This document shows, in pieces, positions 19,247-32,335 of a stretch of 64,000 bases of DNA. The notes beneath the pieces were generated by a model. It searched no databases, was not told the DNA's origin, and was given only the letters and a program-made list of their open reading frames with translations. The stretch is from an uncultured Clostridia bacterium. GTDB taxonomy: Bacteria; Bacillota; Clostridia; Oscillospirales; Ruminococcaceae. Made by a program: the position numbers and the translations under genes. The stretch spans positions 95,644 through 159,643 of the forward strand of contig CANQPL010000001.1 of assembly GCA_947625735.1 (NCBI GenBank), in the 5' to 3' direction. Every line of letters begins with the position of its first letter. Positions within the stretch are counted from its first letter, which is position 1.

Positions 19247-20497
19247 TTACTTTGCATATGCCGTAATTATGAACTGTGAAACGAGTACGACTGCGATAAG
19301 TGCTATGGGGTAAGCCGCCGCATAAGCAGAGGCAACGTTATCGGTCTTGGCAACATTAATAAGCGTACCCAGTGCAGGTGTAGAGGTCATGCCTCCGGTA
19401 ATTCCTCCCAGATTGTTGAAAAGGGGGAGCTTTATGATATATTTTGCGATAATGAAGCCCACGATCATGGGAATAAGCGTCATGAGAGCGCCATAAAGGA
19501 AATAATTTACTTTAAAATACTCTGTGAAACTTGCACCGCCCGGGATACCTGCACCGATAAGGAACATCATAAGCCCGAACTCTCTGAAAAGCTCCAGCAT
19601 ACTCTTGTTGGGGGTAACGCTTAAATTTCCGAAATGTCCGAAATGTGCGATAACCAGTCCCGCAAGCAGACAGCCGCCCGTGGTACCAAGTGAAAAACTG
19701 GACGTACCCATTGGGATCTTAATGCCGCCCACCAGAAGTCCGATGACTATTGCCAGTGCAAAGGGTGCAAGACCGAATCCGTCAAGGTGAAAAAGCTCAC
19801 TGCTGTCCTTGCGTACTCTGCCGGTATCGACCGAGGTGATCTTTGATCTTTCCTCCTCAATATTGGCTTTGCATATTTTAGGCATAAGCTGTACGAAAAG
19901 CACAACACCGACAACGCCGAAAAGATACGCAATTCCGTGTCCTACGGTCACCTCTGCCTCCAGCTCGGAAAGCATATCCGTAGGGTATGCAGATGCCAAC
20001 GTGTCCTTTGCCGCAGAAAATGCAGGCGTTGAGGTAAGCGCTCCGGAAAGAAGTCCTACTGCCATTACCGAGTCACAGCCCAGTACTGCAATGCAGAATA
20101 CGGTGGTCGCACCGCCCAGCAGAATAATTATAAGGCTAAGCAGTGCATAAGATGTGAAATTTTTCTTAAGGCTTGAAAAGAAGTTAGGTCCTGCAATAAA
20201 GCCTACAGATGTAACAAACAGAATAAGTCCGATATTCTCCACGATCTTAAGATAGTTTTTGGAGATCGAGGATACGGCAATGTCTGTGCCCTTTAAATAA
20301 ATTGCATTTGTCGCCGCATCATTTGCAAAGAACAGCGCACCTATCAGCAGTGCTACGATAAACACTCCCGCAGTACCAAGTGAGATACCTTTTACGGTGA
20401 TGCGTCCCAGAGCGTAGCCCAGCGCCGCAACTACAAATGCGATAAACAAAAGGAATGTGATACCTGTGATCGAAAGAATTCCCCCAAACAGGTTCAT
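19247..20497 (-). CDS. AspT/YidE-type membrane antiporter (candidate succinate exporter)
   Basis: About 416 residues and ten or more hydrophobic helices in two repeated halves, each with the glycine-rich signature of the aspartate:alanine exchanger family (FVTSVGFIAGPNFF; FLIGAGIPGGASFTEYF) and a conserved GLLSGALTSTPAFSAA / GITGGMTSTPALGTL pair. The TrkA-C domains of classical AspT are missing. Start: ATG 20497 with GGGAGG 9 bases upstream is preferred over a longer frame from 20548. It follows the fumarate reductase genes, so export of succinate is an attractive guess; the family also carries aspartate and other dicarboxylates. Confidence 0.75.
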   Translation of the reverse strand: MNLFGGILSITGITFLLFIAFVVAALGYALGRITVKGISLGTAGVFIVALLIGALFFANDAATNAIYLKGTDIAVSSISKNYLKIVENIGLILFVTSVGFIAGPNFFSSLKKNFTSYALLSLIIILLGGATTVFCIAVLGCDSVMAVGLLSGALTSTPAFSAAKDTLASAYPTDMLSELEAEVTVGHGIAYLFGVVGVVLFVQLMPKICKANIEEERSKITSVDTGRVRKDSSELFHLDGFGLAPFALAIVIGLLVGGIKIPMGTSSFSLGTTGGCLLAGLVIAHFGHFGNLSVTPNKSMLELFREFGLMMFLIGAGIPGGASFTEYFKVNYFLYGALMTLIPMIVGFIIAKYIIKLPLFNNLGGITGGMTSTPALGTLINVAKTDNVASAYAAAYPIALIAVVLVSQFIITAYAK

Positions 20498-20590
20498 AGG
20501 TTTATACCTCCCATTTTTCTGTAGGACAGACTGATCGGAGCATGACACTTCACGATCGGATCAGACTCTCCTTAACTAAAATAAACACTG
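20498..20590 (-). promoter_or_regulatory. Leader region of the permease gene
   Basis: Between the tfrA terminator and the permease lies about 90 bases that include the inverted repeat CTGATC...GATCAG on the minus strand. No clear -35/-10 pair was found, so the gene may depend on read-through of the terminator or on an atypical promoter. Confidence 0.3.
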
Positions 20591-20625
20591 TAAACCCCCG
20601 CAGATCCGCAGGGGTTTACTTGTTC
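20591..20625 (-). terminator. Terminator after the fumarate reductase gene
   Basis: AAACCCCTGCGGATCTGCGG (start) and the matching GGGGTTTA end form a strong hairpin (bases 20591-20618) about 80 bases after the tfrA stop. Confidence 0.75.
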
Positions 20626-20699: not shown

Positions 20700-22301
20700 T
20701 TAATTTGCTTTCCTTGCGTAATCGGGCAGCAGCTTAGGAGATACCACATCAGTTTCGATGCCTGCTGCTTTCATTTCATCTGCAAACTTATTTACATGGT
20801 CAAGAGTGAGCTTGCCCACAGTGACTTCCTTGTACTTCTTAGCAACGCTTCTGCCTGCATTTCTTCCGAATACGATAACGTCCAGCAGAGAATTTCCCAT
20901 AAGTCTGTTTCTGCCGTGAATACCGCCTACTGCCTCGCCTGCAACATAGAGATTCTCAATGCCGCTCATGCCGTCATCGGTAATGTCGATGCCGCCGTTC
21001 TGATAGTGAAGAGTGGGGTATACAATGATAGGCTCTTTACGGATATCTATGCCGTATTCCATGAACATTCTCAGCATTGCGGGAATACGCTTTTCAATAG
21101 TTCCCTCACCGTTTTTCAGCTCGATCATAGGAGTATCCAGCCATACGCCCTGTCCGTCTCCCGTGCTTATACCCTTGCCTCTTGCCTTGCACTCACGGAT
21201 AATGGAAGATGCACACACATCACGGGTTTCAAGAGGATGCATGAATACCTCGCCATCGCAGTTTACAAGCTTAGCGCCCAGAGAACGTACCTTCTCTGTT
21301 ACAAGTGCGCCGAAGATCTGCTCGGGGAATGCTGCACCTGTGGGGTGATACTGAAGCGAATCAGCATACAGCAGCTTTGCACCTGCACGATAAGCAAGCA
21401 CCAGTCCGTCAGCAGTTGCGCCGTAATGGTTGGAAGTGGGGAAGCCCTGATAGTGAAGTCTGCCTGCACCGCCTGTTGCGATAACGACGGTCTTAGCCTT
21501 AGCTACCATCAGCTCCTTAGTTTCCATGTTCATAAGAACTGCGCCTGCTGCCTTGCCCTCATCATCGAGTATTATTTCAATAGCTGCGGTAAAGTCGATA
21601 ACAGGGATCTGACGGTTGAGTACCTCATCACGGAGCGTTCTCATGATCTCGGCACCGGAATAGTCCTTGCAGGCGTGCATTCTCTTGCGGGATGTGCCGC
21701 CGCCGTGGGTGGTTACCATAGTGCCGTCGGGTGTCTTATCAAATTCAACGCCCAGCTCATTGAGCCACTTGATAGCATCGGGTGCTTCGGTTACGAGCTT
21801 GTATACCAGCTCATGCTTTGCAGCAAAATGACCGCCGCCGTAAGCGTCAATGTAATGGATAGCAGGGGAGTCGTTGGGCTTATCCGCAGCCTGAATGCCG
21901 CCCTCTGCCATCATGGTGTTTGCGTCGCCTATACGCAGCTTTGTTACGATCATAACATTTGCGCCGCCGTTGTGAGCCTCGATAGCTGCCGAAGAGCCTG
22001 CGCCGCCGCCGCCGATAACAAGCACGTCTACATCATATTTAGGGTGTTCAAGGTCGATCTTTGCGGGATCTATACGGCTGTTTGCCTGTAAAAGAGCAGC
22101 CAGCTCATGAGGAACCTTTTCGCCCTTGTTAGGACCTATCTTTAATTCCTCAAATTCTGCTTCGATGTGATCGGGGTGGTATGTAGCGAGGATCTCTTCC
22201 TTCTGCTCTGCTGTCATTCTCTCAGGCTCATATGCTGCATTTGCAGCCCGGTTGGCTTCTACCTTTTTGATCGAAGCAAGCATTTCTTCATTTGTATACA
22301 T
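20700..22301 (-). CDS. tfrA: Fumarate reductase flavoprotein subunit, TfrA-like
   Basis: Reduces fumarate to succinate. 533 residues with the Rossmann FAD site VLVIGGGGAGSSAAIEAHN, MAEGGIQAA, THGGGTSRKRMHACKDYSG, QYHPTGAAFP and the catalytic Arg region ETRDVCASSIIREC, then YVAGEAVGGIHGRNRLMGNS. The position of the His that covalently holds FAD in FrdA/SdhA (SHTxAAEGG) is Asn here (ANTMMAEGG), as expected for a TfrA-like enzyme with non-covalent FAD. No FrdC/FrdD membrane anchor is encoded nearby. Its partner iron-sulfur gene is 15 bases upstream. Aspartate oxidase is less likely given the HdrABC-linked context. Confidence 0.85.
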   Translation of the reverse strand: MYTNEEMLASIKKVEANRAANAAYEPERMTAEQKEEILATYHPDHIEAEFEELKIGPNKGEKVPHELAALLQANSRIDPAKIDLEHPKYDVDVLVIGGGGAGSSAAIEAHNGGANVMIVTKLRIGDANTMMAEGGIQAADKPNDSPAIHYIDAYGGGHFAAKHELVYKLVTEAPDAIKWLNELGVEFDKTPDGTMVTTHGGGTSRKRMHACKDYSGAEIMRTLRDEVLNRQIPVIDFTAAIEIILDDEGKAAGAVLMNMETKELMVAKAKTVVIATGGAGRLHYQGFPTSNHYGATADGLVLAYRAGAKLLYADSLQYHPTGAAFPEQIFGALVTEKVRSLGAKLVNCDGEVFMHPLETRDVCASSIIRECKARGKGISTGDGQGVWLDTPMIELKNGEGTIEKRIPAMLRMFMEYGIDIRKEPIIVYPTLHYQNGGIDITDDGMSGIENLYVAGEAVGGIHGRNRLMGNSLLDVIVFGRNAGRSVAKKYKEVTVGKLTLDHVNKFADEMKAAGIETDVVSPKLLPDYARKAN

Positions 22302-22316
22302 GGTGCAGCTCCTCCC

Positions 22317-22991
22317 TTACTTTTCAATATCTCTGTTGTTGTAGCGTTCCTGAAGCTGCTCGTTGGATTCCGCCATGAGCGTATCAAGGAACTCCTTGAA
22401 ATCGCCGTTGTGTATCTCCTTTACCCTGTCCTCAAGGTGCTGAGTTTTTGGCTGGAGATACTTTCCGTTGATCCTTCTTGCAAGCATAGCCACCTGCGGG
22501 TGGGAGATGCCTGCGGGACATCTGGAGGAGCATACGCCGCACATTACGCAATCGAAGGATTCGTCTGCACATTTGTCAAATTCGCCTCTCTGTGCATAAG
22601 CGATATACTGCATAACATTCAGCTTCTGTGTACAAGCCTTTGTGCAGGCATTGCAGCCTACACAAGCGTAGATCTCAGGGTAAAGCTGCATCATAACAGC
22701 CTGTGTGGTGGGGATATTGTTGATATCATAGATCTGTTTTACCAGCGGGAAGAAGGGCAGAGTTGCAATGTACATATCCTCCTGTACCTGTGTCTGGCAG
22801 GCAAGGCAGGTCTTAAGCTCGGGGTCGCCCTTTATCCTGTATATTGTGGCACAGGCACCGCAGAATCCGTTGCGGCAGCCGCAGCCTCTGATAAGCTGAT
22901 AACCCGCATATTCCATAGCTTTCATGATGGTAAGGCTTGCAGGCACGGTGTACTGCTTGCCGAACAGATAAATATTTACCATATTATCCAT
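22317..22991 (-). CDS. tfrB: Fumarate reductase iron-sulfur subunit, TfrB-like without the HdrB domain
   Basis: About 224 residues: a plant-type [2Fe-2S] domain (GCGCRNGFCGAC...CLAC, about residues 36-65) followed by two [4Fe-4S] motifs, CVGCNACTKAC (about 106-116) and CVMCGVCSSRCP (about 147-158). Carries electrons to the flavoprotein. Methanogen TfrB is fused to an HdrB-like CCG domain; that part is missing here and HdrB is a separate gene upstream. ATG 22991 with AAAGGAGTG is preferred over a longer frame from 23048. Confidence 0.8.
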   Translation of the reverse strand: MDNMVNIYLFGKQYTVPASLTIMKAMEYAGYQLIRGCGCRNGFCGACATIYRIKGDPELKTCLACQTQVQEDMYIATLPFFPLVKQIYDINNIPTTQAVMMQLYPEIYACVGCNACTKACTQKLNVMQYIAYAQRGEFDKCADESFDCVMCGVCSSRCPAGISHPQVAMLARRINGKYLQPKTQHLEDRVKEIHNGDFKEFLDTLMAESNEQLQERYNNRDIEK

Positions 22992-23013
22992 CTTGAATTT
23001 CACTCCTTTAATA

Positions 23014-23847
23014 TCAATATTCGTTAGGCAGCTCACCGAGCTGGTCAAATCTGAAAACGGGACCGTCCTTGCATACGTACTTATTGCCGATGTTGCAGCG
23101 TCCGCACTTGCCGATGGCGCATTTCATGCGAAGCTCCATGGTTGTAAACACCTGCGTTTCCTTGAAGCCCAGTTCTTTAAGTCCCGCAAGTGTGAATTTT
23201 ATCATAATCGGAGGACCGCATATAAGAACAGTCTTGCTGATATCCGGGGTAAGCTCCTTTACGTAATTGGGGACAAAGCCTACGTGACCGTCCCAGCCCT
23301 CCTGTTCACGGTCGATTGTAAGGTTTACGGTGATGCCGTCATCTGCCAGCCACTCGTTCAATATCTCCTGATAATCCACAAGATCGTCCTTTGAACGGGA
23401 ACCGTAAATTATCTGTATGCTGCCGTAGTTTTCCCTCTTGTCACGGCAGTAGTTTATTACCGAACGCAGAGGAGCAAGTCCGATACCGCCTGCGATAAAG
23501 AGAAGATCCTTGCCCTTGAGCTTTTCCGGATCCTCCACGGGAAAACCGTTGCCGTAGGGTCCTCTTACGGTGATCTGCTGACCTACGTCCATCATGTGGA
23601 GCCATGAGGTAAGGCAGCCGCATTTCTTAATGGAAAATTCCATAAATTCTTTGTTTGTGGGAGATGAGGTAATTGAAAACATACCCTCGCCCACTCCGGG
23701 AACAGAAAGCATAGCGCACTGACCGGGAATATGCTCGAACAGCTTCTTGCCGTCTGTGCCGACTACCCGGAATGTCTTTACATCGGGAGTATCGATCCGG
23801 ATATCGGTAACAACGCCGAGTTTTGGTATCAAGGTTTCATTCAGCAT
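23014..23847 (-). CDS. floxA: FAD/NAD(P)-binding oxidoreductase subunit, FloxA/HydG-like
   Basis: 277 residues of the ferredoxin-NADP reductase-like family found in dihydroorotate dehydrogenase PyrK, sulfhydrogenase gamma and FloxA. An FAD domain (about 1-110, RGPYGNGFPVE), an NAD(P) domain starting LLFIAGGIGLAPLRS, and a C-terminal [2Fe-2S] site CAIGKCGRCNIGNKYVC. It would be the entry point of electrons from NADH. Sits between the Fe-S subunit FloxB (7 bases upstream) and TfrB. Confidence 0.78.
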   Translation of the reverse strand: MLNETLIPKLGVVTDIRIDTPDVKTFRVVGTDGKKLFEHIPGQCAMLSVPGVGEGMFSITSSPTNKEFMEFSIKKCGCLTSWLHMMDVGQQITVRGPYGNGFPVEDPEKLKGKDLLFIAGGIGLAPLRSVINYCRDKRENYGSIQIIYGSRSKDDLVDYQEILNEWLADDGITVNLTIDREQEGWDGHVGFVPNYVKELTPDISKTVLICGPPIMIKFTLAGLKELGFKETQVFTTMELRMKCAIGKCGRCNIGNKYVCKDGPVFRFDQLGELPNEY

Positions 23848-23854
23848 AGTTTTC

Positions 23855-24874
23855 TTACTCCTCTCCGAAGGTCTTGATGACCTTGATGATATTCATGGAG
23901 ATCGGGCATCTGGAAAGACAGCGTCCGCAGCCTACGCAGCCGAACTCACCGTTGTTGTTGTCGGGAAAATATACCAGCTTGTGCATGAATCTCTGTCTGA
24001 AACGCTCGACCTGAGAGTTACGGGAGTTTGCTGCCGCCATTTTGGTGAAATCGGAGTACATACAGCTGTCCCATGTGCGGTAACGCTTGATGCCGTGACC
24101 TGTATCAAAATCCTTTATATCATAGCACTGGCAGGTGGGGCAGACAAATGTACAAGTGCCGCAGCCGAGACAAGCCTCGGACAGCTTCTTCCAGTGTTCG
24201 GAATTGAAGATGTCAAGGAGCGTATTCTTTCTGAAATAATCGGTGCTTACATTTGCAAAGGGAAGTTTTTTCATGATCTCGGCGGTCTGTGCCTTCTGAG
24301 CGTCAACAGCCTCGGTGCCGCACTCTGTAAGCATATCCTTTACGGATTCAATGAATTTTTCGCCCTTTTCGGTGTTAGCGTTTATATAAAGAGCATCTTC
24401 CGTAATGTGGCAGGCAGCATCGCCCTCGGGAGATGCGGCATCAATGCCGAATACAGAGCAGAAGCAGTTTTCCTCAGGCTCTGTGCAGGCAAGAGTTATG
24501 ACCGTGCCATGTTCTCTGCGTGTGGCATAATAGGTATCTACAGGCTCTGCAAGGAACACCTTGTCGAGAATGGTAAAGCTTCTTGCGTCACAGGCACGCA
24601 CGCCGAATATTACGAAATTTTCGCTTTCCTGACGGTTGTCGATGATCTCTATGTTCTTGCCGTTCATGTTGAAATCGCAGAGGTTTGTGGTCTGGGGGAA
24701 GAAGTGATCCTTTGCGCTTCTAACGGTGTTGAGCGCCTTTGACAGCTTCACACCCTCCTCCCACTTTACATAGGAGGCTCTGCCGTCCTTGCCGTCTGCG
24801 GGAAGATAGAGGGTCTGAGCCGCTGCAACAGCTGCAAACAGATCATCTAATTTTTCGATGGGAAGTCTGAACAT
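23855..24874 (-). CDS. floxB: Iron-sulfur subunit, sulfhydrogenase beta/FloxB-like
   Basis: 339 residues. The N-terminal domain (FVIFGVRACDARSFTILDKV) resembles the beta subunit of archaeal sulfhydrogenase and AsrA; the C-terminal half has two [4Fe-4S] motifs, CLGCGTCTFVCPTCQC and CVGCGRCLSRCP. It passes electrons between FloxA and the next partner. Its start touches the stop of the upstream gene (1-base overlap). Confidence 0.75.
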   Translation of the reverse strand: MFRLPIEKLDDLFAAVAAAQTLYLPADGKDGRASYVKWEEGVKLSKALNTVRSAKDHFFPQTTNLCDFNMNGKNIEIIDNRQESENFVIFGVRACDARSFTILDKVFLAEPVDTYYATRREHGTVITLACTEPEENCFCSVFGIDAASPEGDAACHITEDALYINANTEKGEKFIESVKDMLTECGTEAVDAQKAQTAEIMKKLPFANVSTDYFRKNTLLDIFNSEHWKKLSEACLGCGTCTFVCPTCQCYDIKDFDTGHGIKRYRTWDSCMYSDFTKMAAANSRNSQVERFRQRFMHKLVYFPDNNNGEFGCVGCGRCLSRCPISMNIIKVIKTFGEE

Positions 24875-25851
24875 TATTCCTTACCCCCTCTTTTATATAC
24901 GATATTCGGCTCACAGTCACCGAAGGTGTAGGCATTAAGAGGCGCTCTTGTATCAAGATCCTCGCCTGCCTGATATTCGCCGTAAAATTCGTTTATATCC
25001 TTGATATACTTGCGGTTAAGAAGGTGCAGAGGAATGTTCTGAGGACATACTCTTGTACATTCGCCGCAGTCGGTACATCTGCCCGCAACGTGGAACGCAC
25101 GGATAAGATGAAACATATTTTCTTCAAAGGAATCGGTTGCCGCTCTCTGCTGTATACCGGAAGCGGGGTTATCAAATACGCAGTTTTCGCAGGAGCAGGC
25201 AGGACATACGTTGCGGCAGGCATTGCAGCGGATACACTTTGAAAGCTCACCTCTCCAGAACTCATAGCGTTCCTCCGAGGTCATCTTTTCAAGTTTTTTC
25301 ACCATTTCAAAACGTGCGCCGTCATTGTTTACCTCACCGTCATTGCCGATCATCTCATCAAAGATAACGTGCTTCTTGCTCTTGCAGGTCTTGCACTTAT
25401 CGCCCAGAGTTTCGGATTTGGGTATGGTCTTATCTCCGTAAAGAGTGTGGACAGTAACGTTCTCGCCGTCACTTTCCATGCCCGTAATACCCTTGATGCC
25501 CTTTGACTTGACTGTATCCGCATCTACCTTTCCCGTACATTCAACGCCTATAATATAGACGTTTTCACGGAGAATGCGATGCTCCTTCAACAGCTGGTTA
25601 AAGCTGTAGGAGTCGCAGGGCTTGAGGAATACAAGGAGTTTTCCCTCCTTGCGGGACTCTTTGATAATGTATTTTGAAAGGTTGGGGGCGCAGAAATCAT
25701 TGTAAATGAAGCCTGCGTCAAGCTCCTCTGCCGAGGTAAACACGGCGGGAGTAGTATCATAGGCAAACTCGCCCGCTTTCCAGCCGACAACACGGTTTAC
25801 TGTACCGTCGGCAAGCAGCTCCTTTGCACGGCTGATCACTGCTTCTTGCAT
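24874..25851 (-). CDS. floxC: Iron-sulfur subunit, FloxC-like (FrhB-type N-terminus)
   Basis: 325 residues. The N-terminal domain (LVFLKPCDSYSFNQLLKEHR, IIGVECTGK) is related to the F420 hydrogenase/dehydrogenase beta family, and the C-terminal part holds two [4Fe-4S] motifs: CIRCNACRNVCPACSC and CTDCGECTRVCPQ. Extra Cys in DKCKTCKSK may bind another cluster. It overlaps mvhD by 16 bases, so stoichiometric expression is likely. Confidence 0.7.
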   Translation of the reverse strand: MQEAVISRAKELLADGTVNRVVGWKAGEFAYDTTPAVFTSAEELDAGFIYNDFCAPNLSKYIIKESRKEGKLLVFLKPCDSYSFNQLLKEHRILRENVYIIGVECTGKVDADTVKSKGIKGITGMESDGENVTVHTLYGDKTIPKSETLGDKCKTCKSKKHVIFDEMIGNDGEVNNDGARFEMVKKLEKMTSEERYEFWRGELSKCIRCNACRNVCPACSCENCVFDNPASGIQQRAATDSFEENMFHLIRAFHVAGRCTDCGECTRVCPQNIPLHLLNRKYIKDINEFYGEYQAGEDLDTRAPLNAYTFGDCEPNIVYKRGGKE

Positions 25852-26282
25852 CTCAGATCCTCCAATCTCTTGTTCTCTCCAAGCTTTGTGACGGTTTCCA
25901 CAAATTCATTCATGGTCGCCGCAAACTTTGCGCCCTCTGCCGCAGAAACCCATTCCACACGGGTCCTCTCCTTTTCAATGCCCATATAATCGAGCATGGA
26001 GAACAGTAGAGTCATTCTTCTTCTTGCAAAATAGTTGCCTGATGTATAGTGGCAGTCCCCGGGGTGGCAGCCGCACATGATCACACCGTCCGCACCTCTC
26101 TGAAACGCACGTAGTATAAACATGGGGTTGACACGGCATGAGCAGGGAACACGGATTATCTTGACATCGGCAGGGTAGTTAATCCTGTTTGTACCCGCCA
26201 GATCCGCTCCTGCATAGGAACACCAGTTGCAGCAGAATGCAACGATCTTGGGTCTGAATCCTTTTGTTTCGTTTACTTGCAT
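25836..26282 (-). CDS. mvhD: MvhD/FloxD-like [2Fe-2S] protein
   Basis: 148 residues, the MvhD family that links an electron-input module to HdrA. Conserved Cys: FCCNWCSYAGADLAG at the start, VPCSCRV in the middle and CGCHPGDCHY. It overlaps the end of hdrA by 10 bases, the same adjacency seen in mvhD-hdrA and floxD-hdrA loci elsewhere. No MvhA/MvhG hydrogenase subunits are present, so NADH via FloxA is the likely electron source. Confidence 0.85.
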   Translation of the reverse strand: MQVNETKGFRPKIVAFCCNWCSYAGADLAGTNRINYPADVKIIRVPCSCRVNPMFILRAFQRGADGVIMCGCHPGDCHYTSGNYFARRRMTLLFSMLDYMGIEKERTRVEWVSAAEGAKFAATMNEFVETVTKLGENKRLEDLRCKKQ

Positions 26283-28264
26283 ATCGCATCTACCTCCGCC
26301 ATGATCTGTTTATTGGAGAAGCCCTTGAGATCCATTGCGCCGGACGGGCAGGCTACCGTACAAGCACCGCAGCCCTGACATACCGCCTCATTGACGCTTG
26401 CCACACGGCGGATCGCAACCGTTCTGTCAGGCTGTCTGAACTCCTTGTCGGAATAGGTGATAGCACCGTAAGGGCATACCTTTTCGCAGGCGGAGCAGCC
26501 GTTGCACATAAGCTCGTCGGAATGAGCCACACAGGGGTTGCAGGTAAGCTTATCCTTGCTGAGAAGTCCTATTACCTTAGCTGCCGCCGCACTTGCCTGA
26601 GATACAGTCTCGGGAATATCCTTCGGTCCCTGGCAGACGCCCGAGAGGAAAACACCTGCGGTGGGGCTTTCCACGGGACGGAGCTTTGGATGCGCTTCGG
26701 TAAAGAAGTCGTTTGTATCCATGCTTGCGGTGAGCATTGTAGCGATCGAACGTGCGGTCTTGTCAGGCTCAATAGCAGCAGCCAGCACCACAAGATCGGC
26801 TTCGATATGGAGCTGCTCATTTGCGATAAGATCCGATGCCTGTACCATCAGCTTGCCGTCTGCACGTGGGGCAACCTTTCCTACCATGCCCTTGATGTAG
26901 TGAACGCCGTATTCCTCCACAGCTCTGCGGTAAAATTCATCAAAATTCTTACCGGGTGTACGAACGTCAATATAGAATACATACACATCTGTATCGGGAT
27001 ATTTTTCACGGGTAAGCATTGCGTGTTTAGCGGTGTACATACAGCATATCTTTGAGCAGTACTGCTTTCCGCATTCTGTAGTGGATCTTGAACCCACGCA
27101 CTGAACAAACACAATTGTGTGCGGGTGTACGCCGTCTGAGGGACGAAGAAGCTGACCGCTTGTAGGTCCTGCTGCGTTGGTAAGACGCTCAAACTCCAGA
27201 GAGGTGATAACGTCCTTACTCTGTGAATATGCAAATTCATCGAATTTTTCAAGGCTTATGGGATTATAGCCGGTAGCCGCAACAATTGCGCCGTACTTTT
27301 CCTCGACTATCTCATCTTGCTGCTTGTAGTCTATAGCACCTGCGGAGCAAACCTTAGCGCATACTCCGCACTTGCCGTTTTTGAGCATATTACAGTTGTC
27401 TGCATCAATGGTAGCCACCTTCGGAACTGCCTGAGCAAAGGGAATATAGATAGCTCGTCTGTTATCCATACCCAGATTAAATTCGTTTGGAATCTTCTTC
27501 TGGGGACATTTTTCTGTGCATACGCCGCAGCCGGTACATTTTGTTGCGTCCACATAGCGGGCTTTTTTTCTTATCTTCACAGTGAAATTGCCAACAAATC
27601 CCGATACAGCCTCTACCTCGCTGTATGCGTAGATATGGATCTTCTCATTCTGTGCGCAGTCAACCATTTTAGGTGTGAGTATACATGATGCACAGTCGAG
27701 AGTAGGGAATGTCTTGTCTATCTGAGTCATCTTTCCGCCGATAGTGGAATTTTTCTCCACGATGTCAACGTCATAGCCTGCCTCTGCAATATCAAGAGCA
27801 GTCTGTATTCCCGCAATACCGCCGCCGATAACCAGCGCACGCTTGGTAACAGGACTTTCTCCCGCAGTGAGGGGAGCGTTGAGCTGTACCTTTGCTACAG
27901 CCGTTCTTGCAAGAATTATGGCTTTTTCGGTGGCTGTCACCATATCCTTATGTATCCATGAACACTGCTCACGGATATTGGCGATCTCCACCATGTAGGG
28001 GTTAAGACCTGCCTTTGCGGCAGCCTTCCTGAATGTCTGTTCATGCATACGCGGCGAGCAGGAGCAAACTACAACTCCGTCCAGCTTCTGCTCTTTTATG
28101 GTGTCCTGAATAAGTGTCTGACCCACCTCGGAACACATATACTGATAATCAACGGAGAAAACAACCGCAGGCTCTTTGCTCATCGCCTCGGCAACTGCCT
28201 TGACGTCGACTGTAGCCGCAATGTTCGTACCGCAGTGGCATACAAATACGCCTATTCTAAGCAT
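26273..28264 (-). CDS. hdrA: Heterodisulfide reductase subunit A (electron-bifurcating flavoprotein)
   Basis: 663 residues, full length. N-terminal domain with FVCHCGTNIA, FAD Rossmann motif ALVIGGGIAGIQTALDIAEA, Cys-rich inserted ferredoxin domain (CTGCGVCTEKCP; CGVCAKVCSAGA), and a C-terminal ferredoxin domain with two [4Fe-4S] motifs (CNGCSACEKVCP; CQGCGACTVACP). In HdrABC this FAD splits electron pairs between a high- and a low-potential route. hdrC is 15 bases upstream and mvhD overlaps downstream. Confidence 0.9.
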   Translation of the reverse strand: MLRIGVFVCHCGTNIAATVDVKAVAEAMSKEPAVVFSVDYQYMCSEVGQTLIQDTIKEQKLDGVVVCSCSPRMHEQTFRKAAAKAGLNPYMVEIANIREQCSWIHKDMVTATEKAIILARTAVAKVQLNAPLTAGESPVTKRALVIGGGIAGIQTALDIAEAGYDVDIVEKNSTIGGKMTQIDKTFPTLDCASCILTPKMVDCAQNEKIHIYAYSEVEAVSGFVGNFTVKIRKKARYVDATKCTGCGVCTEKCPQKKIPNEFNLGMDNRRAIYIPFAQAVPKVATIDADNCNMLKNGKCGVCAKVCSAGAIDYKQQDEIVEEKYGAIVAATGYNPISLEKFDEFAYSQSKDVITSLEFERLTNAAGPTSGQLLRPSDGVHPHTIVFVQCVGSRSTTECGKQYCSKICCMYTAKHAMLTREKYPDTDVYVFYIDVRTPGKNFDEFYRRAVEEYGVHYIKGMVGKVAPRADGKLMVQASDLIANEQLHIEADLVVLAAAIEPDKTARSIATMLTASMDTNDFFTEAHPKLRPVESPTAGVFLSGVCQGPKDIPETVSQASAAAAKVIGLLSKDKLTCNPCVAHSDELMCNGCSACEKVCPYGAITYSDKEFRQPDRTVAIRRVASVNEAVCQGCGACTVACPSGAMDLKGFSNKQIMAEVDAICK

Positions 28265-28279
28265 CTGCTTTTCTCCTCC

Positions 28280-28657
28280 TTACTTACTGTATTTACGGAA
28301 TGCGCTGACGAGAAGCTGCTGAGGCGTTTCCTCGTCAATAAGCTCCGGCACCATGCTTGCTTTGAGATGATTATTGCCCTTCTGACGGATAGCGGAAAGT
28401 CTTACAGCCTCCACTACCTTTGCAGGCTCTACGTTTCTCGGACATCTTTCGACACAGGCAAAGCAGGAAAGACATTTGTACAGCGATTTACTGTTAAGAA
28501 GCGGTTCAATGTTTCCTGTTTCAACCATGTATACAAACTGGTGAGGGTGATACTCCATCTCATCATAGGAGGGACAGGTACCCGAACATTTTCCGCAGCG
28601 CATACATTTACGCACGTCCACACCGCTTATGCGGAGGACTTCTTCTCTTTTATCCAA
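28280..28657 (-). CDS. hdrC: Heterodisulfide reductase subunit C
   Basis: 125 residues with two [4Fe-4S] motifs, CMRCGKCSGTCPSYDEM and CLSCFACVERCPRNV, that wire HdrA to HdrB. ATG 28657 follows GAGGAGGTAAG. It is 13 bases after hdrB. No membrane helices, so it is the soluble HdrC type and not the DsrK/HdrDE type. Confidence 0.88.
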   Translation of the reverse strand: MDKREEVLRISGVDVRKCMRCGKCSGTCPSYDEMEYHPHQFVYMVETGNIEPLLNSKSLYKCLSCFACVERCPRNVEPAKVVEAVRLSAIRQKGNNHLKASMVPELIDEETPQQLLVSAFRKYSK

Positions 28658-28670
28658 AGCACTTACCTCC

Positions 28671-29459
28671 TCAGTTTTCTTTTACACCCAGAGCCTCTGC
28701 AAGAAGCTCGGTGAAATAATAAACCGGAACACCCTTATCATTTTTCTTCATATTATACATACAAAGCGGGCAGGCAGTCACCAGCAGTTCTGCCTTGAAA
28801 TCGGCTGCACTGTCGGCAACGGCATTTCTTCTTTTTGCAGCGGCGTCCTTGTCCTCCAGGGTAAGATATCCGCCGCAGCATTCATTCCTCATGGGGTATA
28901 TAACAGGCTCTGCACCGATCGCTCTGATAAAATCCTCCATGATCTTCGGATTTTCAGGATCGTCCATCTTCATCACCTTGCCGGGACGAAGCAGCAGACA
29001 GCCGTAATATGCGCCGATTTTTTTGCCTGTCAGGGGATTTGTTACCTTTTCTTTCAGGGTATCAAATCCTACCGTATCTCGGAGCATTTCAAGAAAATGC
29101 ACTACCTTTGTCTCACCGTGATATTCCTCGGGAAGATCGTTTTTCAGGTAATTATTCGCTCTCATGCAGATATCCGCATCGGTCGCCATATCATTGTTGA
29201 CCTGCTTTAACACATTGTGACAGGCTGAACAAAGGGTGATAAGATCCCTGTTATGTGCTTTGGCATCTGCCAAGGCTCTTACGGAGGAGAGTTTTGTGGC
29301 TATCTCGTCCTTTGCCATTGGATAAACGCCGCCGCAGCACTGCCAGTTCTCGATCTCTTCAAGCGTGATACCCAGTGCCTGTGCGGAAAGACGGGCATAT
29401 CTGTCAAGGTCCTGAGCCTTGTTTTTCAGCGTGCAGCCCGGGTAATAACTGTAAACCAT
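28671..29459 (-). CDS. hdrB: Heterodisulfide reductase subunit B
   Basis: 262 residues with two complete CCG domains: YYPGC near residue 9, CCGG near 41, CSAC near 77; then a Cys near 153, CCGG near 194 and CPLC near 231. These bind the two non-cubane [4Fe-4S] clusters where CoM-S-S-CoB is reduced in methanogens. Since CoM/CoB are not expected in a Firmicute, the natural acceptor here is probably the TfrAB pair or an unknown disulfide. First gene of the Hdr-Flox-Tfr block, 22 bases after fumC. Confidence 0.9.
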   Translation of the reverse strand: MVYSYYPGCTLKNKAQDLDRYARLSAQALGITLEEIENWQCCGGVYPMAKDEIATKLSSVRALADAKAHNRDLITLCSACHNVLKQVNNDMATDADICMRANNYLKNDLPEEYHGETKVVHFLEMLRDTVGFDTLKEKVTNPLTGKKIGAYYGCLLLRPGKVMKMDDPENPKIMEDFIRAIGAEPVIYPMRNECCGGYLTLEDKDAAAKRRNAVADSAADFKAELLVTACPLCMYNMKKNDKGVPVYYFTELLAEALGVKEN

Positions 29460-29481: not shown

Positions 29482-30858
29482 TTATATCATCTGCTCGGGG
29501 TGGAACACCTCGTCAAATTTTTCGGGGGTAAGGAAACCAAGCTCAACGCACGCTTCCTTAAGGGAAATATTGTCCTTGTACGCTTTCTTTGCGGTCTTAG
29601 CGGCATTCTCATAACCTATATAGGGGTTGAGTGCCGTTACGAGCATAAGCGAATTGTACAGGTTGTGGTGCATTTTTTCCTTGTTAGCCTTTATTCCCAC
29701 AGCGCAGTTTTTATTAAAGGAGCGGATCGATTCACTGAGAAGCCTTGCTGACTGTAAGAAGTTGTAGGCGCATACGGGCATGAACACGTTAAGCTCAAAA
29801 TTGCCCTGACTTGCAGCCATTCCCACAGCTACATCGTTACCCATTACCTGAACGGCAACCATTGTGACCTGTTCGCACTGAGTGGGATTTACCTTTCCGG
29901 GCATAATGGAGGAGCCGGGTTCATTTTCGGGAATGAATATCTCGCCAAGACCGTCTCTGGGACCGCTTGCAAGCCATCTTACATCGTTTGCGATCTTCAT
30001 CATATCCGCAGCAAGAGCTTTCAGTGCGCCGTGAGCGAATACTATCTCGTCCTTGCTGGTAAGAGCATGAAATTTATTGGGTGCTGTGATAAAATCCTTG
30101 CCGGTAAGCTCAGATACAGCCTTTGCCACTTCCTTGTCGAAGCCCTTGGGGGTGTTAAGTCCCGTGCCTACCGCCGTACCGCCCAGAGCAAGCTCTTTAA
30201 GTTGGGGGAGAGCGATCTCAAGGAGTTTTCTGTCCTTTTCAAGGGAGGATCTCCAGCCGCTTATCTCCTGTGAGAATGCGATAGGAGTAGCGTCCTGCAA
30301 ATGTGTGCGTCCGCTCTTTACAATGCCCTCGTTTTCCTTTTCAAGGCGCTTGAATGTATCCACAAGTTCATCTATTGCGGGCAGAACATTGTCCTCGATC
30401 GCCATTACCGCCGAAATGTGCATAGCGGTAGGAAATGTATCATTGGAGGACTGGCTCATGTTGATATCGTCATTGGGGTGCAGCAGCTTTGCTCCTGCGA
30501 TCTCGTTTCCTCTGTTGGCAATTACCTCGTTTGCGTTCATGTTGGACTGTGTGCCGCTTCCTGTCTGCCACACTACAAGCGGGAAATGCTCGTTAAGGCT
30601 GCCGCTTATCACCTCGTCACACGCCTGTGATATTGCAGCGAGCTTTTCGTCTGTCATCTTCTCGGGTTTAAGGGCATGATTTGCAATGGCTGCGGCTTTT
30701 TTCAGATAGCCGAACGCCTTTGTGATCTCTCTCGGCATAGTTTCGATCCCAACACCGATAAGAAAATTCTCATGACTTCTTTCGGTCTGGGCAGCCCAGT
30801 ATTTGTCGGCGGGTACCTTTACCTCGCCCATTGAATCGTGTTCGATACGGTATTCCAT
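29482..30858 (-). CDS. fumC: Fumarate hydratase, class II
   Basis: Malate to fumarate, iron-independent. 458 residues with the superfamily signature GSSIMPGKVNPTQCE, SGSGTQSNMNAN-type loop (TGSGTQSNMNANEV), SSNDTFPTAMHI and GRTHLQDATPIAFSQE. Aspartase is a homologue, but context (malate dehydrogenase before, fumarate reductase after) and length favour FumC. 22 bases separate it from hdrB, suggesting one transcript. Confidence 0.92.
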   Translation of the reverse strand: MEYRIEHDSMGEVKVPADKYWAAQTERSHENFLIGVGIETMPREITKAFGYLKKAAAIANHALKPEKMTDEKLAAISQACDEVISGSLNEHFPLVVWQTGSGTQSNMNANEVIANRGNEIAGAKLLHPNDDINMSQSSNDTFPTAMHISAVMAIEDNVLPAIDELVDTFKRLEKENEGIVKSGRTHLQDATPIAFSQEISGWRSSLEKDRKLLEIALPQLKELALGGTAVGTGLNTPKGFDKEVAKAVSELTGKDFITAPNKFHALTSKDEIVFAHGALKALAADMMKIANDVRWLASGPRDGLGEIFIPENEPGSSIMPGKVNPTQCEQVTMVAVQVMGNDVAVGMAASQGNFELNVFMPVCAYNFLQSARLLSESIRSFNKNCAVGIKANKEKMHHNLYNSLMLVTALNPYIGYENAAKTAKKAYKDNISLKEACVELGFLTPEKFDEVFHPEQMI

Positions 30859-30951: not shown

Positions 30952-31893
30952 TTAAAGATTGATATCCTTGATAACCGCTTTCAGGCTGTCTGCGGAATGT
31001 CTGAGCTTTTCGATTTCCTCATCTGTGAGGGGAACGTTGAGCTTGCCCTCAACTCCCTTCTGTCCGATAACCGAAAGGGTAGAAAGACATACATCGCTGA
31101 TGCCGTATTCGCCGTTCATCATGGTGGATACGGTAAGTGTAGTGTCAATGCCGCTGAACAGGCACTTGCAGATGTGGCATACCGAAATTGCAATAGCATA
31201 GAAGGTAGCGCCCTTGTTTGCAATTATCTTAGCGCCGGATTTTCTTGTGTACTCCTCGATCTCGGCATAGTTTACAACGGGACGTTTATCTGCGGGCAGA
31301 CACTCAATGTACTGCTCAATGGGAATATTGGAGATGTTGGCAAGTGACCACGGCACGAAAGAGGAGTCGCCGTGTTCACCGAAAACGTAAGCATGAACAT
31401 TCTGCTGGCTGATATTAAAGGTTTCGGAAAGGCGGGTGCGCAGACGGGCTGTATCAAGTGTAGTACCCGAGCCGATGATCTGATTTGAGGGCAGTCCTGA
31501 AATTTTGTGGAACAGATATGTAAGAATATCTATAGGATTGCTTACTACGATATAAACGGCTTCGGGAGCGTATTTAACTATCTGAGGAATAATGGTTTTT
31601 GTGATGTCTACATTTACCTGTGCAAGCTCAAGACGGGACTGACCCGCTTTTCTCGGCAGACCTGAGGTAAGTATTACCACATCGGAACCTGCTGCGTCTG
31701 CGTAGGTACCCGCATAGATGGAAACAGGTGAGCAGAACGGTACGCCCTGACGGATATCCATAGCCTCCCCCAGAGCCTTGTTTTCGTTGATATCGATCAT
31801 GACGATCTCAGACGCAATGCCGGTAACGACCATGTTATAGGCAATTGTGGAGCCGACGCTGCCCGCGCCGATGATTGTGACTTTGTTGCTCAT
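30952..31893 (-). CDS. mdh: Malate dehydrogenase (LDH/MDH family, Arg at the specificity position)
   Basis: 313 residues with the NAD Rossmann motif TIIGAGSVGSTIAYN and Asp in IVMIDINEN that selects NAD. The active-site loop reads SGLPRKAGQSRLEL: the residue that is Gln102 in lactate dehydrogenase is Arg here, the classical determinant for oxaloacetate/malate. The catalytic His is in GEHGDSSFVPWS. Annotated by homology alone it would be called L-lactate dehydrogenase. It starts the reductive branch with fumC and the fumarate reductase cluster. Confidence 0.8.
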   Translation of the reverse strand: MSNKVTIIGAGSVGSTIAYNMVVTGIASEIVMIDINENKALGEAMDIRQGVPFCSPVSIYAGTYADAAGSDVVILTSGLPRKAGQSRLELAQVNVDITKTIIPQIVKYAPEAVYIVVSNPIDILTYLFHKISGLPSNQIIGSGTTLDTARLRTRLSETFNISQQNVHAYVFGEHGDSSFVPWSLANISNIPIEQYIECLPADKRPVVNYAEIEEYTRKSGAKIIANKGATFYAIAISVCHICKCLFSGIDTTLTVSTMMNGEYGISDVCLSTLSVIGQKGVEGKLNVPLTDEEIEKLRHSADSLKAVIKDINL

Positions 31894-32009: not shown

Positions 32010-32335
32010 GTGAAAAAAATTATAAATTTGATATTGCTAAAATTTTAACAAACAGTGTGGAAACCTGTTGCAGAATTAACAAGCCTATAGATTTTCACTC
32101 CCGCTAATTTGGAAAAATTGCCAAAAAAGACGGTTATTTGGCACTTGCGACTGATGAAGGAGCTTCTTCGGATTTCCGTGAATTTTCCTTAATTGGATAT
32201 TAAATCGTAAAAAAAACGGTAAAAATTTAATTGTAAATTTTTTTATAATTATTTTTAAAAATATCTGTATTTCTTCGTAATGCATATTTTTTCCCTGTCT
32301 GAAAACAATAAAATGTCAGAGAAAGGAATGATCCG

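What the first reader, a model, noticed from the sequence alone, without database searches (positions are those of the whole stretch)
20700..29459. HdrBCA-Flox(MvhD)-TfrBA cluster: a candidate NADH-driven, electron-bifurcating soluble fumarate reductase
Nine adjacent genes on one strand encode full HdrB, HdrC and HdrA, an MvhD-like protein, FloxC, FloxB and FloxA-like subunits, and a TfrB-like iron-sulfur and TfrA-like flavoprotein. All cofactor motifs are intact: two CCG domains in HdrB, two [4Fe-4S] in HdrC, FAD plus four ferredoxin motifs in HdrA, FAD/NAD and [2Fe-2S] in FloxA. HdrABC-Flox is known to couple NADH and ferredoxin to another acceptor by flavin-based bifurcation, and methanogen Tfr uses CoM/CoB thiols. 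Here no thiol cofactor genes are nearby and fumarate reductase sits in the same block, so I infer that fumarate is the high-potential acceptor: NADH oxidation reduces both ferredoxin and fumarate. I do not know of this exact combination being described.
Basis: partly seen in the sequence, partly recalled or inferred. Interest (0 to 1): 0.9.

Follow-up and report, generated by a model that had tools for sequence, protein, structure and literature searches.

The report
Ferredoxin-coupled NADH:fumarate reductase operon
A bacterium in whose genome no genes for the usual quinone-based, membrane-anchored fumarate reductase were found carries, in one gene block, a soluble fumarate reductase next to an NADH-oxidising complex of a kind predicted to split electrons, which would likely let it save extra energy when it makes succinate; the idea was already put forward in 2019-2020 for another succinate producer, and the gene set is widespread in relatives.

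Summary
In detail: nine intact genes at 20700-29459 (- strand) encode HdrB, HdrC, HdrA, FlpD/MvhD, FloxC, FloxB, FloxA, FrdB and FrdA. Fumarase and a malate-dehydrogenase-like gene precede them, an exchanger gene follows. The order is the same in 57 of 57 related loci with enough flank. In 291 genomes of the class, FrdA is in 40, HdrA in 43, both in 39. The host genome has Rnf but gave no UbiA, Sdh cytochrome b or DsrC hit. New here: HdrB has two subtypes. The Frd-type was seen in 24 of 28 FrdA+ genomes examined, even where the two loci are unlinked, and in 0 of 42 FrdA-negative ones, so HdrB probably feeds FrdB. 'TfrB-like' is off too: FrdB lacks the CCG half. FrdBA also occurs without Hdr nearby (18 of 40 distant loci). 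Ferredoxin coupling and HdrB-to-FrdB transfer remain inferred; my searches found no assay.

The parts
30952..31893 (-). lactate/malate dehydrogenase family; predicted malate dehydrogenase (Arg at the substrate-specificity position)
   Evidence: NCBIfam: over the cut-off as L-LDH and marginally over it for an MDH subfamily; Arg at that position in 48 of 48 aligned rows, window included; the Arg/Gln rule is recalled
29482..30858 (-). FumC, class II fumarase
   Evidence: TIGR00979 707.5 bits over cut-off; next to the block in 51 of 53 loci
28671..29459 (-). HdrB, Frd-type subtype, two CCG domains
28280..28657 (-). HdrC, two [4Fe-4S] motifs
26273..28264 (-). HdrA, FAD (predicted bifurcating) and Fe-S clusters
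   Evidence: aligned over residues 3-660 to 5odc_A HdrA, 690 bits; single match in the genome
25836..26282 (-). FlpD/MvhD
   Evidence: PF02662 188.6 bits
24874..25851 (-). FloxC, dicluster Fe-S protein
23855..24874 (-). FloxB, sulfhydrogenase-beta/AsrA-like Fe-S protein
23014..23847 (-). FloxA, FAD/NAD(P)H-binding and [2Fe-2S]
   Evidence: (sulfhydrogenase gamma 9nez_C)
22317..22991 (-). FrdB, [2Fe-2S] and two [4Fe-4S], 224 aa, start corrected from 23048
20700..22301 (-). FrdA, fumarate reductase flavoprotein with an N-terminal extension (residues 1-88)
20590..20619 (-). terminator-like hairpin between FrdA and the exchanger (13 pairs, weak T tail)
   Evidence: consensus match only
19247..20548 (-). 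AspT/YidE/YbjL-type exchanger, possible succinate exporter
   Evidence: PF06826; next gene in 35 of 66 loci
32019..32048 (-). promoter-like site upstream of the whole unit
   Evidence: consensus match only

Best explanation
The block encodes a soluble fumarate reductase (FrdBA) side by side with a FlxABCD-HdrABC-type complex and is predicted to work as one NADH-oxidising machine that would split electrons between ferredoxin and fumarate. Inferred route: NADH -> FloxA (FAD, 2Fe-2S) -> FloxB/FloxC -> FlpD -> HdrA FAD, where one electron of each pair goes down to ferredoxin and the other goes up through HdrC and HdrB to FrdB and the FrdA FAD, which reduces fumarate. Overall: 2 NADH + fumarate + 2 Fd(ox) -> 2 NAD+ + succinate + 2 Fd(red), about -49 kJ/mol at standard potentials (my arithmetic: NADH -320 and fumarate +33 mV from passages, ferredoxin about -420 mV recalled). 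Reduced ferredoxin would be spent by Rnf to pump ions, or by a hydrogenase. The flanking genes would make fumarate (malate dehydrogenase, fumarase) and possibly export succinate. Shown: gene set, order, conservation, intact ligands, catalytic residues, HdrB subtype association, no hits for UbiA, Sdh cytochrome b and DsrC, presence of Rnf. Inferred: complex formation, direct HdrB-to-FrdB transfer, bifurcation, direction, NADH rather than NADPH.
For: Nine-gene order on one strand in 57 of 57 loci with at least 7.3 kb upstream, of 80 fetched; FumC beside it in 51 of 53, the MDH-like gene in 43 of 52. Class sample of 291 genomes: FrdA in 40, HdrA in 43, both in 39; on one contig in 34 of the 39 (33 about 4 kb apart, one 1.3 kb), on different contigs in the other 5. 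Among 40 distant loci, 4 keep the parts together in another order (FrdBA before HdrBCA-FlpD-FloxCBA) and 3 have HdrC-HdrB-FrdBA alone. Frd-type HdrB in 24 of 28 FrdA+ genomes examined, including 6 where HdrBCA-Flox lies away from FrdBA, and in 0 of 42 FrdA-negative genomes with a HdrB at the locus, while HdrA, FlpD and Flox identities do not split this way (the genome counts were tallied by me from these lists). HdrB tree of 47: the 12 canonical HdrBs and L164 lie beyond a branch of 1.02 changes per site, support 100/100. FrdA active-site His, Thr, Glu, Arg set conserved in 121-122 of 122; model closest by Foldseek to E. coli FrdA. Own genome: Rnf C, D, E, A and B, no UbiA (14 of 14 controls ring), no Sdh_cyt (7 of 14), no DsrC (only 1 of 14). 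In L175 the block sits with a different fumarase (FumAB), a PF00939-family symporter and a two-component system. PMC7282089: the operon rises about 4-fold under CO2 limitation (not significant for every subunit), and loss of succinate under H2, which it cites, fits ferredoxin coupling.
Against: No assay that I could find. FrdBA is not bound to this complex: 18 of 40 distant FrdA loci have no Hdr gene in the fetched stretch, and 4 of 39 FrdA+ genomes of the phylum sample have no HdrA match, so FrdBA can take other donors. One FrdBA-linked HdrB (L164) groups with the canonical type, and in three more FrdA+ genomes (G382, G039, G033) only a canonical HdrB was seen. The SdhE and HdrB family scores do not tell the subtypes apart. 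The joined FrdB-FrdA model was too poor to show an interface. PMC7282089 also reports that adding Na2S had the opposite effect to H2, which the authors call confusing. NADH versus NADPH was not tested. The host genome is 93.6% complete, so absences are not proof.
Confidence: 0.62

Rival explanations
1. NADH:fumarate reductase without bifurcation: Flox-Hdr only wires NADH to FrdBA in a soluble chain and no ferredoxin is reduced.
For: NADH-to-fumarate is strongly downhill; bifurcation is inferred from HdrA homology alone; Hdr/flox had never been studied biochemically when PMC4215793 was written in 2014 (passage).
Against: HdrA keeps the aligned Cys and FAD-domain motifs of the bifurcating HdrA 5odc and the genome has Rnf to use ferredoxin; a simple reductase would not need HdrA, HdrB and HdrC (inference).
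Confidence: 0.15
2. Thiol-linked route: HdrB reduces a disulfide (or oxidises a thiol pair) and FrdBA draws electrons from that thiol, like a split thiol:fumarate reductase.
For: HdrB normally acts on a disulfide; PMC7282089 writes 'ferredoxin (and thiols)'; three distant loci carry only HdrC-HdrB-FrdBA.
Against: FrdB has no CCG domains to take electrons from a thiol by itself; no DsrC hit in the genome (other thiols not searched); FrdBA and a dedicated HdrB subtype occur together.
Confidence: 0.12
3. FrdBA takes electrons from a quinol or another carrier, and Hdr-Flox with its own disulfide acceptor is merely co-regulated.
For: FrdBA exists without neighbouring Hdr in 18 of 40 distant loci, one of them (L142) with NrfH-like cytochromes.
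Against: No UbiA and no Sdh cytochrome b hit in this genome; 39 of 40 FrdA carriers in the class sample also carry HdrA; no membrane anchor among the block's proteins.
Confidence: 0.07
4. The complex runs backwards, oxidising succinate with NAD+ and reduced ferredoxin (confurcation).
For: HdrA enzymes are reversible in principle (recalled).
Against: The His that carries FAD covalently in succinate dehydrogenases is Asn in 122 of 122 FrdAs (aligned to SDH chains; its meaning for direction is recalled); neighbours are MDH-like, fumarase and an exchanger.
Confidence: 0.04

Closest known systems
'Succinate operon' of Pseudoclostridium thermosuccinogenes (PMC7282089; passages and one section read; the 2019 preprint seen only as a reference)
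   Same: [quoted passage not shown] same proposal that fumarate reduction is linked to ferredoxin reduction
   Different: No sequence of that strain was compared here; this window has an MDH-like gene further upstream; HdrB subtypes are not mentioned in the passages I read
FlxABCD-HdrABC (Hdr-Flox) of Desulfovibrio (PMC4215793 passages; Ramos 2015 seen only as a reference)
   Same: Same subunit set for NADH oxidation and HdrABC
   Different: There the acceptor is proposed to be a disulfide carrier such as DsrC; here FrdBA is in the block and HdrB is of the Frd subtype
Thiol:fumarate reductase TfrAB of methanogens
   Same: FrdA's best NCBIfam match is TfrA (340.7 bits, below its 718 cut-off)
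   Different: FrdB lacks the CCG half of TfrB; HdrB and HdrC are separate proteins
8-methylmenaquinol:fumarate reductase SdhABE
   Same: A CCG protein (SdhE/HdrB) next to Frd subunits; HdrB scores 143.8 bits to SdhE
   Different: Cut-off is 500 bits; no UbiA hit here; canonical HdrBs score to SdhE at least as well

Membership tests
FlxABCD-HdrABC | HdrA with FAD and Fe-S ligands | tested here: met
   alignment to 5odc_A over residues 3-660
FlxABCD-HdrABC | FlpD/MvhD, FloxA, FloxB, FloxC in one block with HdrABC | tested here: met
FlxABCD-HdrABC | bifurcation of NADH electrons to ferredoxin and a second acceptor | not testable with these tools
   needs enzymology
P. thermosuccinogenes succinate operon | fumarase, Flx-Hdr, FrdBA, putative transporter in this order | tested here: met
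   published gene list; no sequence of that strain was fetched
Thiol:fumarate reductase (Tfr) | TfrB with HdrB-like CCG half | tested here: not met
   FrdB 224 aa, TfrB match only over profile positions 17-94 of 488; no CCG domain
Quinol:fumarate reductase / complex II | membrane anchor and quinone | tested here: not met
   no anchor in the block; no PF01127 and no PF01040 hit in the 93.6% complete genome
Quinol:fumarate reductase / complex II | His for covalent FAD | tested here: not met
   Asn128 in 122 of 122, opposite His in SDH chains
8-methylmenaquinol:fumarate reductase | SdhE above family cut-off | tested here: not met
   143.8 bits against 500
L-aspartate oxidase | NadB equivalog score and the Glu in the EGGHS motif | tested here: not met
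   271.7 bits against 452.75; Gly200 in 119 of 122, Ala in 3; the genome has its own NadB-like protein in L002; the role of the Glu is recalled
Fumarate reductase flavoprotein | active-site His, Thr-Glu, Arg, His, Arg | tested here: met
   H319, T335, E336, R360, H432, R466 in 121-122 of 122; assignments recalled from E. coli FrdA and flavocytochrome c3

The most novel reading that the evidence does not exclude
Flx-Hdr complexes are modular machines whose acceptor is set by the HdrB subtype: in this widespread subtype HdrB hands high-potential electrons protein-to-protein to FrdB instead of to a disulfide, giving quinone-free fumarate respiration (NADH -> ferredoxin plus fumarate, then Rnf). 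Reading HdrB subtype from a genome would then predict which anaerobes respire fumarate without quinones.
Probability: 0.5. Interest if true: 0.75.

Novelty: new member of a known kind. Interest (0 to 1): 0.55.

Why it matters
How Clostridia that lack quinones make succinate and gain energy from fumarate is, to my knowledge, not settled. If this unit bifurcates, fumarate reduction in many rumen and gut bacteria yields extra reduced ferredoxin, hence ion pumping by Rnf or H2, which changes ATP and H2 budgets for succinate and propionate formation. The HdrB subtype found here gives a genomic marker and a precise biochemical test (does HdrB reduce FrdB?). It would also mend names: one close homologue is named L-aspartate oxidase by its source (P0048).

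Tried and rejected
Looked for prior descriptions with ten paper searches. Among the listings, and the passages read in six papers (PMC7282089, PMC9044749, PMC5861303, PMC10579422, PMC8674449, PMC4215793), only PMC7282089 describes this operon. The library misses most subscription papers, and neither the 2019 preprint nor Ramos 2015 is held.

Tested whether HdrB is nearer to SdhE than to HdrB models as a sign of Frd feeding: canonical HdrBs give the same picture, so dropped. A joined FrdB-FrdA model came out poor (mean pLDDT 60.6, 26 sequences) and was used for no claim or search. A FrdA model from 61 sequences is usable (pLDDT 79.4); its N-terminal 72 residues are barely tested by the VIA rows. 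The UbiA, Sdh_cyt and DsrC tests were run on one genome only. NAD versus NADP preference of FloxA was not settled. The HdrB reference sequences were chosen after seeing identities and the tree, so that classification is not blind; the counts 24, 4, 0 and 42 put into its Fisher test were tallied by hand; 36 of the 42 FrdA-negative HdrBs were classed by BLAST score only and are not in the tree. Related genomes are not independent, so the Fisher values overstate certainty. Taking all Frd-linked HdrBs as one side of the tree is not rejected (p 0.263) but also not shown.

Rows dropped or unseen: of 80 near loci, 23 were too short upstream to test the block. Of 38 other FrdA+ genomes in the phylum list, 5 were not fetched at length (G056, G088, G205, G345, G364) and one fetched locus (L152) is cut at FrdA. 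The class list gave 39 other FrdA+ genomes; 6 were fetched at length for typing. Of 40 FrdA-negative loci 4 had no HdrB, and G418 had none. The 40 were mostly the highest HdrA scores among FrdA-negative genomes.
Full report
WHAT IS THERE. Two corrections: FrdB most likely starts at 22991, and it is not a TfrB, because the match to TfrB covers only the 2Fe-2S part and the CCG half is missing. The unit continues upstream with FumC (29482-30858) and a lactate/malate dehydrogenase-family gene (30952-31893) that has Arg, not Gln, at the classical specificity position, as do all 48 aligned rows (the rule is recalled), so malate dehydrogenase is the likelier reading although NCBIfam names it L-LDH first. 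Downstream lies an AspT/YidE-type exchanger, separated by a terminator-like hairpin, so it may be its own transcript.

CONSERVATION. Of 80 related loci fetched from named genome records (FrdA 77-96% identical; many titles name cattle, goat, deer, sheep, buffalo or chicken gut, one is the isolate Eubacterium coprostanoligenes, three are titled Treponema or Spirochaetaceae), 57 have at least 7.3 kb upstream, and all 57 hold the nine genes in the same order and strand; FumC precedes them in 51 of 53, the MDH-like gene in 43 of 52, and the exchanger follows in 35 of 66. In an even sample of 291 genomes of the class, FrdA (E at most 1e-80) is in 40, HdrA in 43, both in 39; in 34 of these 39 they are on one contig (33 about 4 kb apart, one 1.3 kb), in 5 on different contigs. 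The single FrdA-only genome is 75% complete; of the four HdrA-only ones one is 62% complete and three have distant HdrAs (43-49%). In 398 genomes of the phylum FrdA is in 39, HdrA in 142, both in 35 (my reading of the two lists).

VARIANTS. I fetched 40 more distant FrdA loci and typed them: 6 have the window's arrangement (one, L167, with HdrC before HdrB); 4 have FrdBA in front of HdrBCA-FlpD-FloxCBA; 8 have HdrA plus a second, mostly very long HdrA-like protein, FlpD and a protein of about 370 aa instead of Flox (HdrC-HdrB seen in 6; the other two, L163 and L165, are cut by contig ends); 3 have HdrC-HdrB-FrdBA alone; 18 have no Hdr gene in the stretch (several with fumarase and malic enzyme, three with pyruvate carboxylase, one with NrfH-like cytochromes); 1 (L152) is cut. 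So FrdBA is a module with several donors. Apart from the two cut loci, none of the 40 keeps HdrA beside FrdBA without HdrB, and three keep HdrB without HdrA.

HdrB SUBTYPES. In the 19 distant FrdBA loci with a HdrB, HdrB is 34-68% identical to the window's (34% is L164; the rest 39-68%), in six FrdA+ genomes whose Hdr-Flox lies away from FrdBA 40-51%, but 31-35% in 12 canonical Hdr-Flox loci without FrdBA; HdrA (53-59% in canonical loci, 51-60% in the rearranged, long-HdrA and unlinked ones), FlpD and Flox do not split this way. The six unlinked loci have the order HdrB-HdrC-HdrA, the canonical ones HdrC-HdrB-HdrA. I then fetched 40 FrdA-negative Hdr-Flox loci: 36 have a HdrB and all 36 are canonical, with 6 more. 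Altogether 24 of 28 FrdA+ genomes examined have a Frd-type HdrB, against 0 of 42 FrdA-negative ones; the near set gave 65 of 65 stretches Frd-type, some repeating genomes of the distant set. The four FrdA+ exceptions are G281 (L164), G382, G039 and G033. The tree of 47 HdrBs sets 12 canonical ones, with L164, apart by a branch of 1.02 at 100/100 support; in the HdrA tree the separations are shorter, and the HdrAs of the long-HdrA variant and of L167 side with the canonical ones. I read this as HdrB having adapted to FrdB, i.e. HdrB is the exit to fumarate reductase. It is correlation, not contact.

GENOME CONTEXT. The genome (93.6% complete) encodes RnfC, D, E, A, B and an unmatched gene in the RnfG position and four matches to the Fe-only hydrogenase domain. 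It gives no hit for UbiA (14 of 14 control genomes do), for Sdh_cyt (7 of 14) or for DsrC (1 of 14). HdrA has a single match. This argues against a quinol-linked enzyme and against DsrC as the acceptor.

MECHANISM. The best-supported reading is NADH oxidation by FloxA, electron delivery over FloxB/C and FlpD to HdrA, bifurcation to ferredoxin and to HdrC-HdrB-FrdB-FrdA-fumarate. Bifurcation rests on HdrA homology (690 bits to 5odc, ligands aligned), not on data. By my arithmetic the net reaction is downhill by about 49 kJ/mol.

PRIOR ART. PMC7282089 (passages and one section read) describes this 'succinate operon' in P. thermosuccinogenes: fumarate hydratase, a bifurcating NADH dehydrogenase/heterodisulfide reductase, fumarate reductase and a possible transporter; it assumes fumarate reduction is coupled to ferredoxin reduction and cites a 2019 preprint on it (title seen only). 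It was the only paper in the library found to hold that reference. Meyer 2014 (title only, seen) links Hdr-Flox, Rnf and fumarate in Desulfovibrio alaskensis, whose fumarate reductase PMC4215793 takes to be menaquinol-linked. So the combination is known as a proposal, unproven in what I could read. What I add: its conservation and rearrangement, its reach across gut Clostridia, the HdrB subtype, the Asn in place of the FAD-binding His, and the probable malate dehydrogenase.

Noticed in passing
L143, L144, L146, L147, L162-L165: FrdBA sits behind HdrA, a second HdrA-like protein of about 1060-1100 aa (1489 aa in L164, with a dihydropyrimidine-dehydrogenase-type domain; partial in L163 and L165), FlpD and a protein of about 370 aa that had no Pfam match in the one case scanned (L144); Flox is missing, so another electron donor is likely.
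   Followed up: partly
L153, L154, L156: HdrC-HdrB-FrdBA with no HdrA or Flox next to it: a possible four-subunit fumarate reductase fed through HdrB.
   Followed up: partly
L142: FrdBA preceded by two NrfH-like cytochromes and an Fe-S protein.
   Followed up: partly
L141, L145, L149: A pyruvate-carboxylase-type protein (scanned in L141) directly upstream of FrdBA in three genomes without an HdrA match; the donor is unknown.
   Followed up: partly
FrdA residues 1-88, window 22038-22301: Conserved N-terminal extension, mostly confidently modelled, outside the range matched by complex II and TfrA families.
   Followed up: partly
one search list, e.g. G371, G212, G098: Many HdrAs of FrdA-negative genomes have one in-frame TGA (possible selenocysteine); the window's HdrA has none.
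   Followed up: no
G000: The operon is patchy: FrdA in 2 of 4 genomes sampled in the window's family (own included) and in 0 of 8 sampled from other families of its order; possible transfer.
   Followed up: no
L218 (G000:C2:4000-16000): A second RnfD-like gene away from the Rnf operon (below the family cut-off in NCBIfam).
   Followed up: no
L065, L108, L110: The operon in records titled Treponema or Spirochaetaceae; transfer or mis-binning.
   Followed up: no
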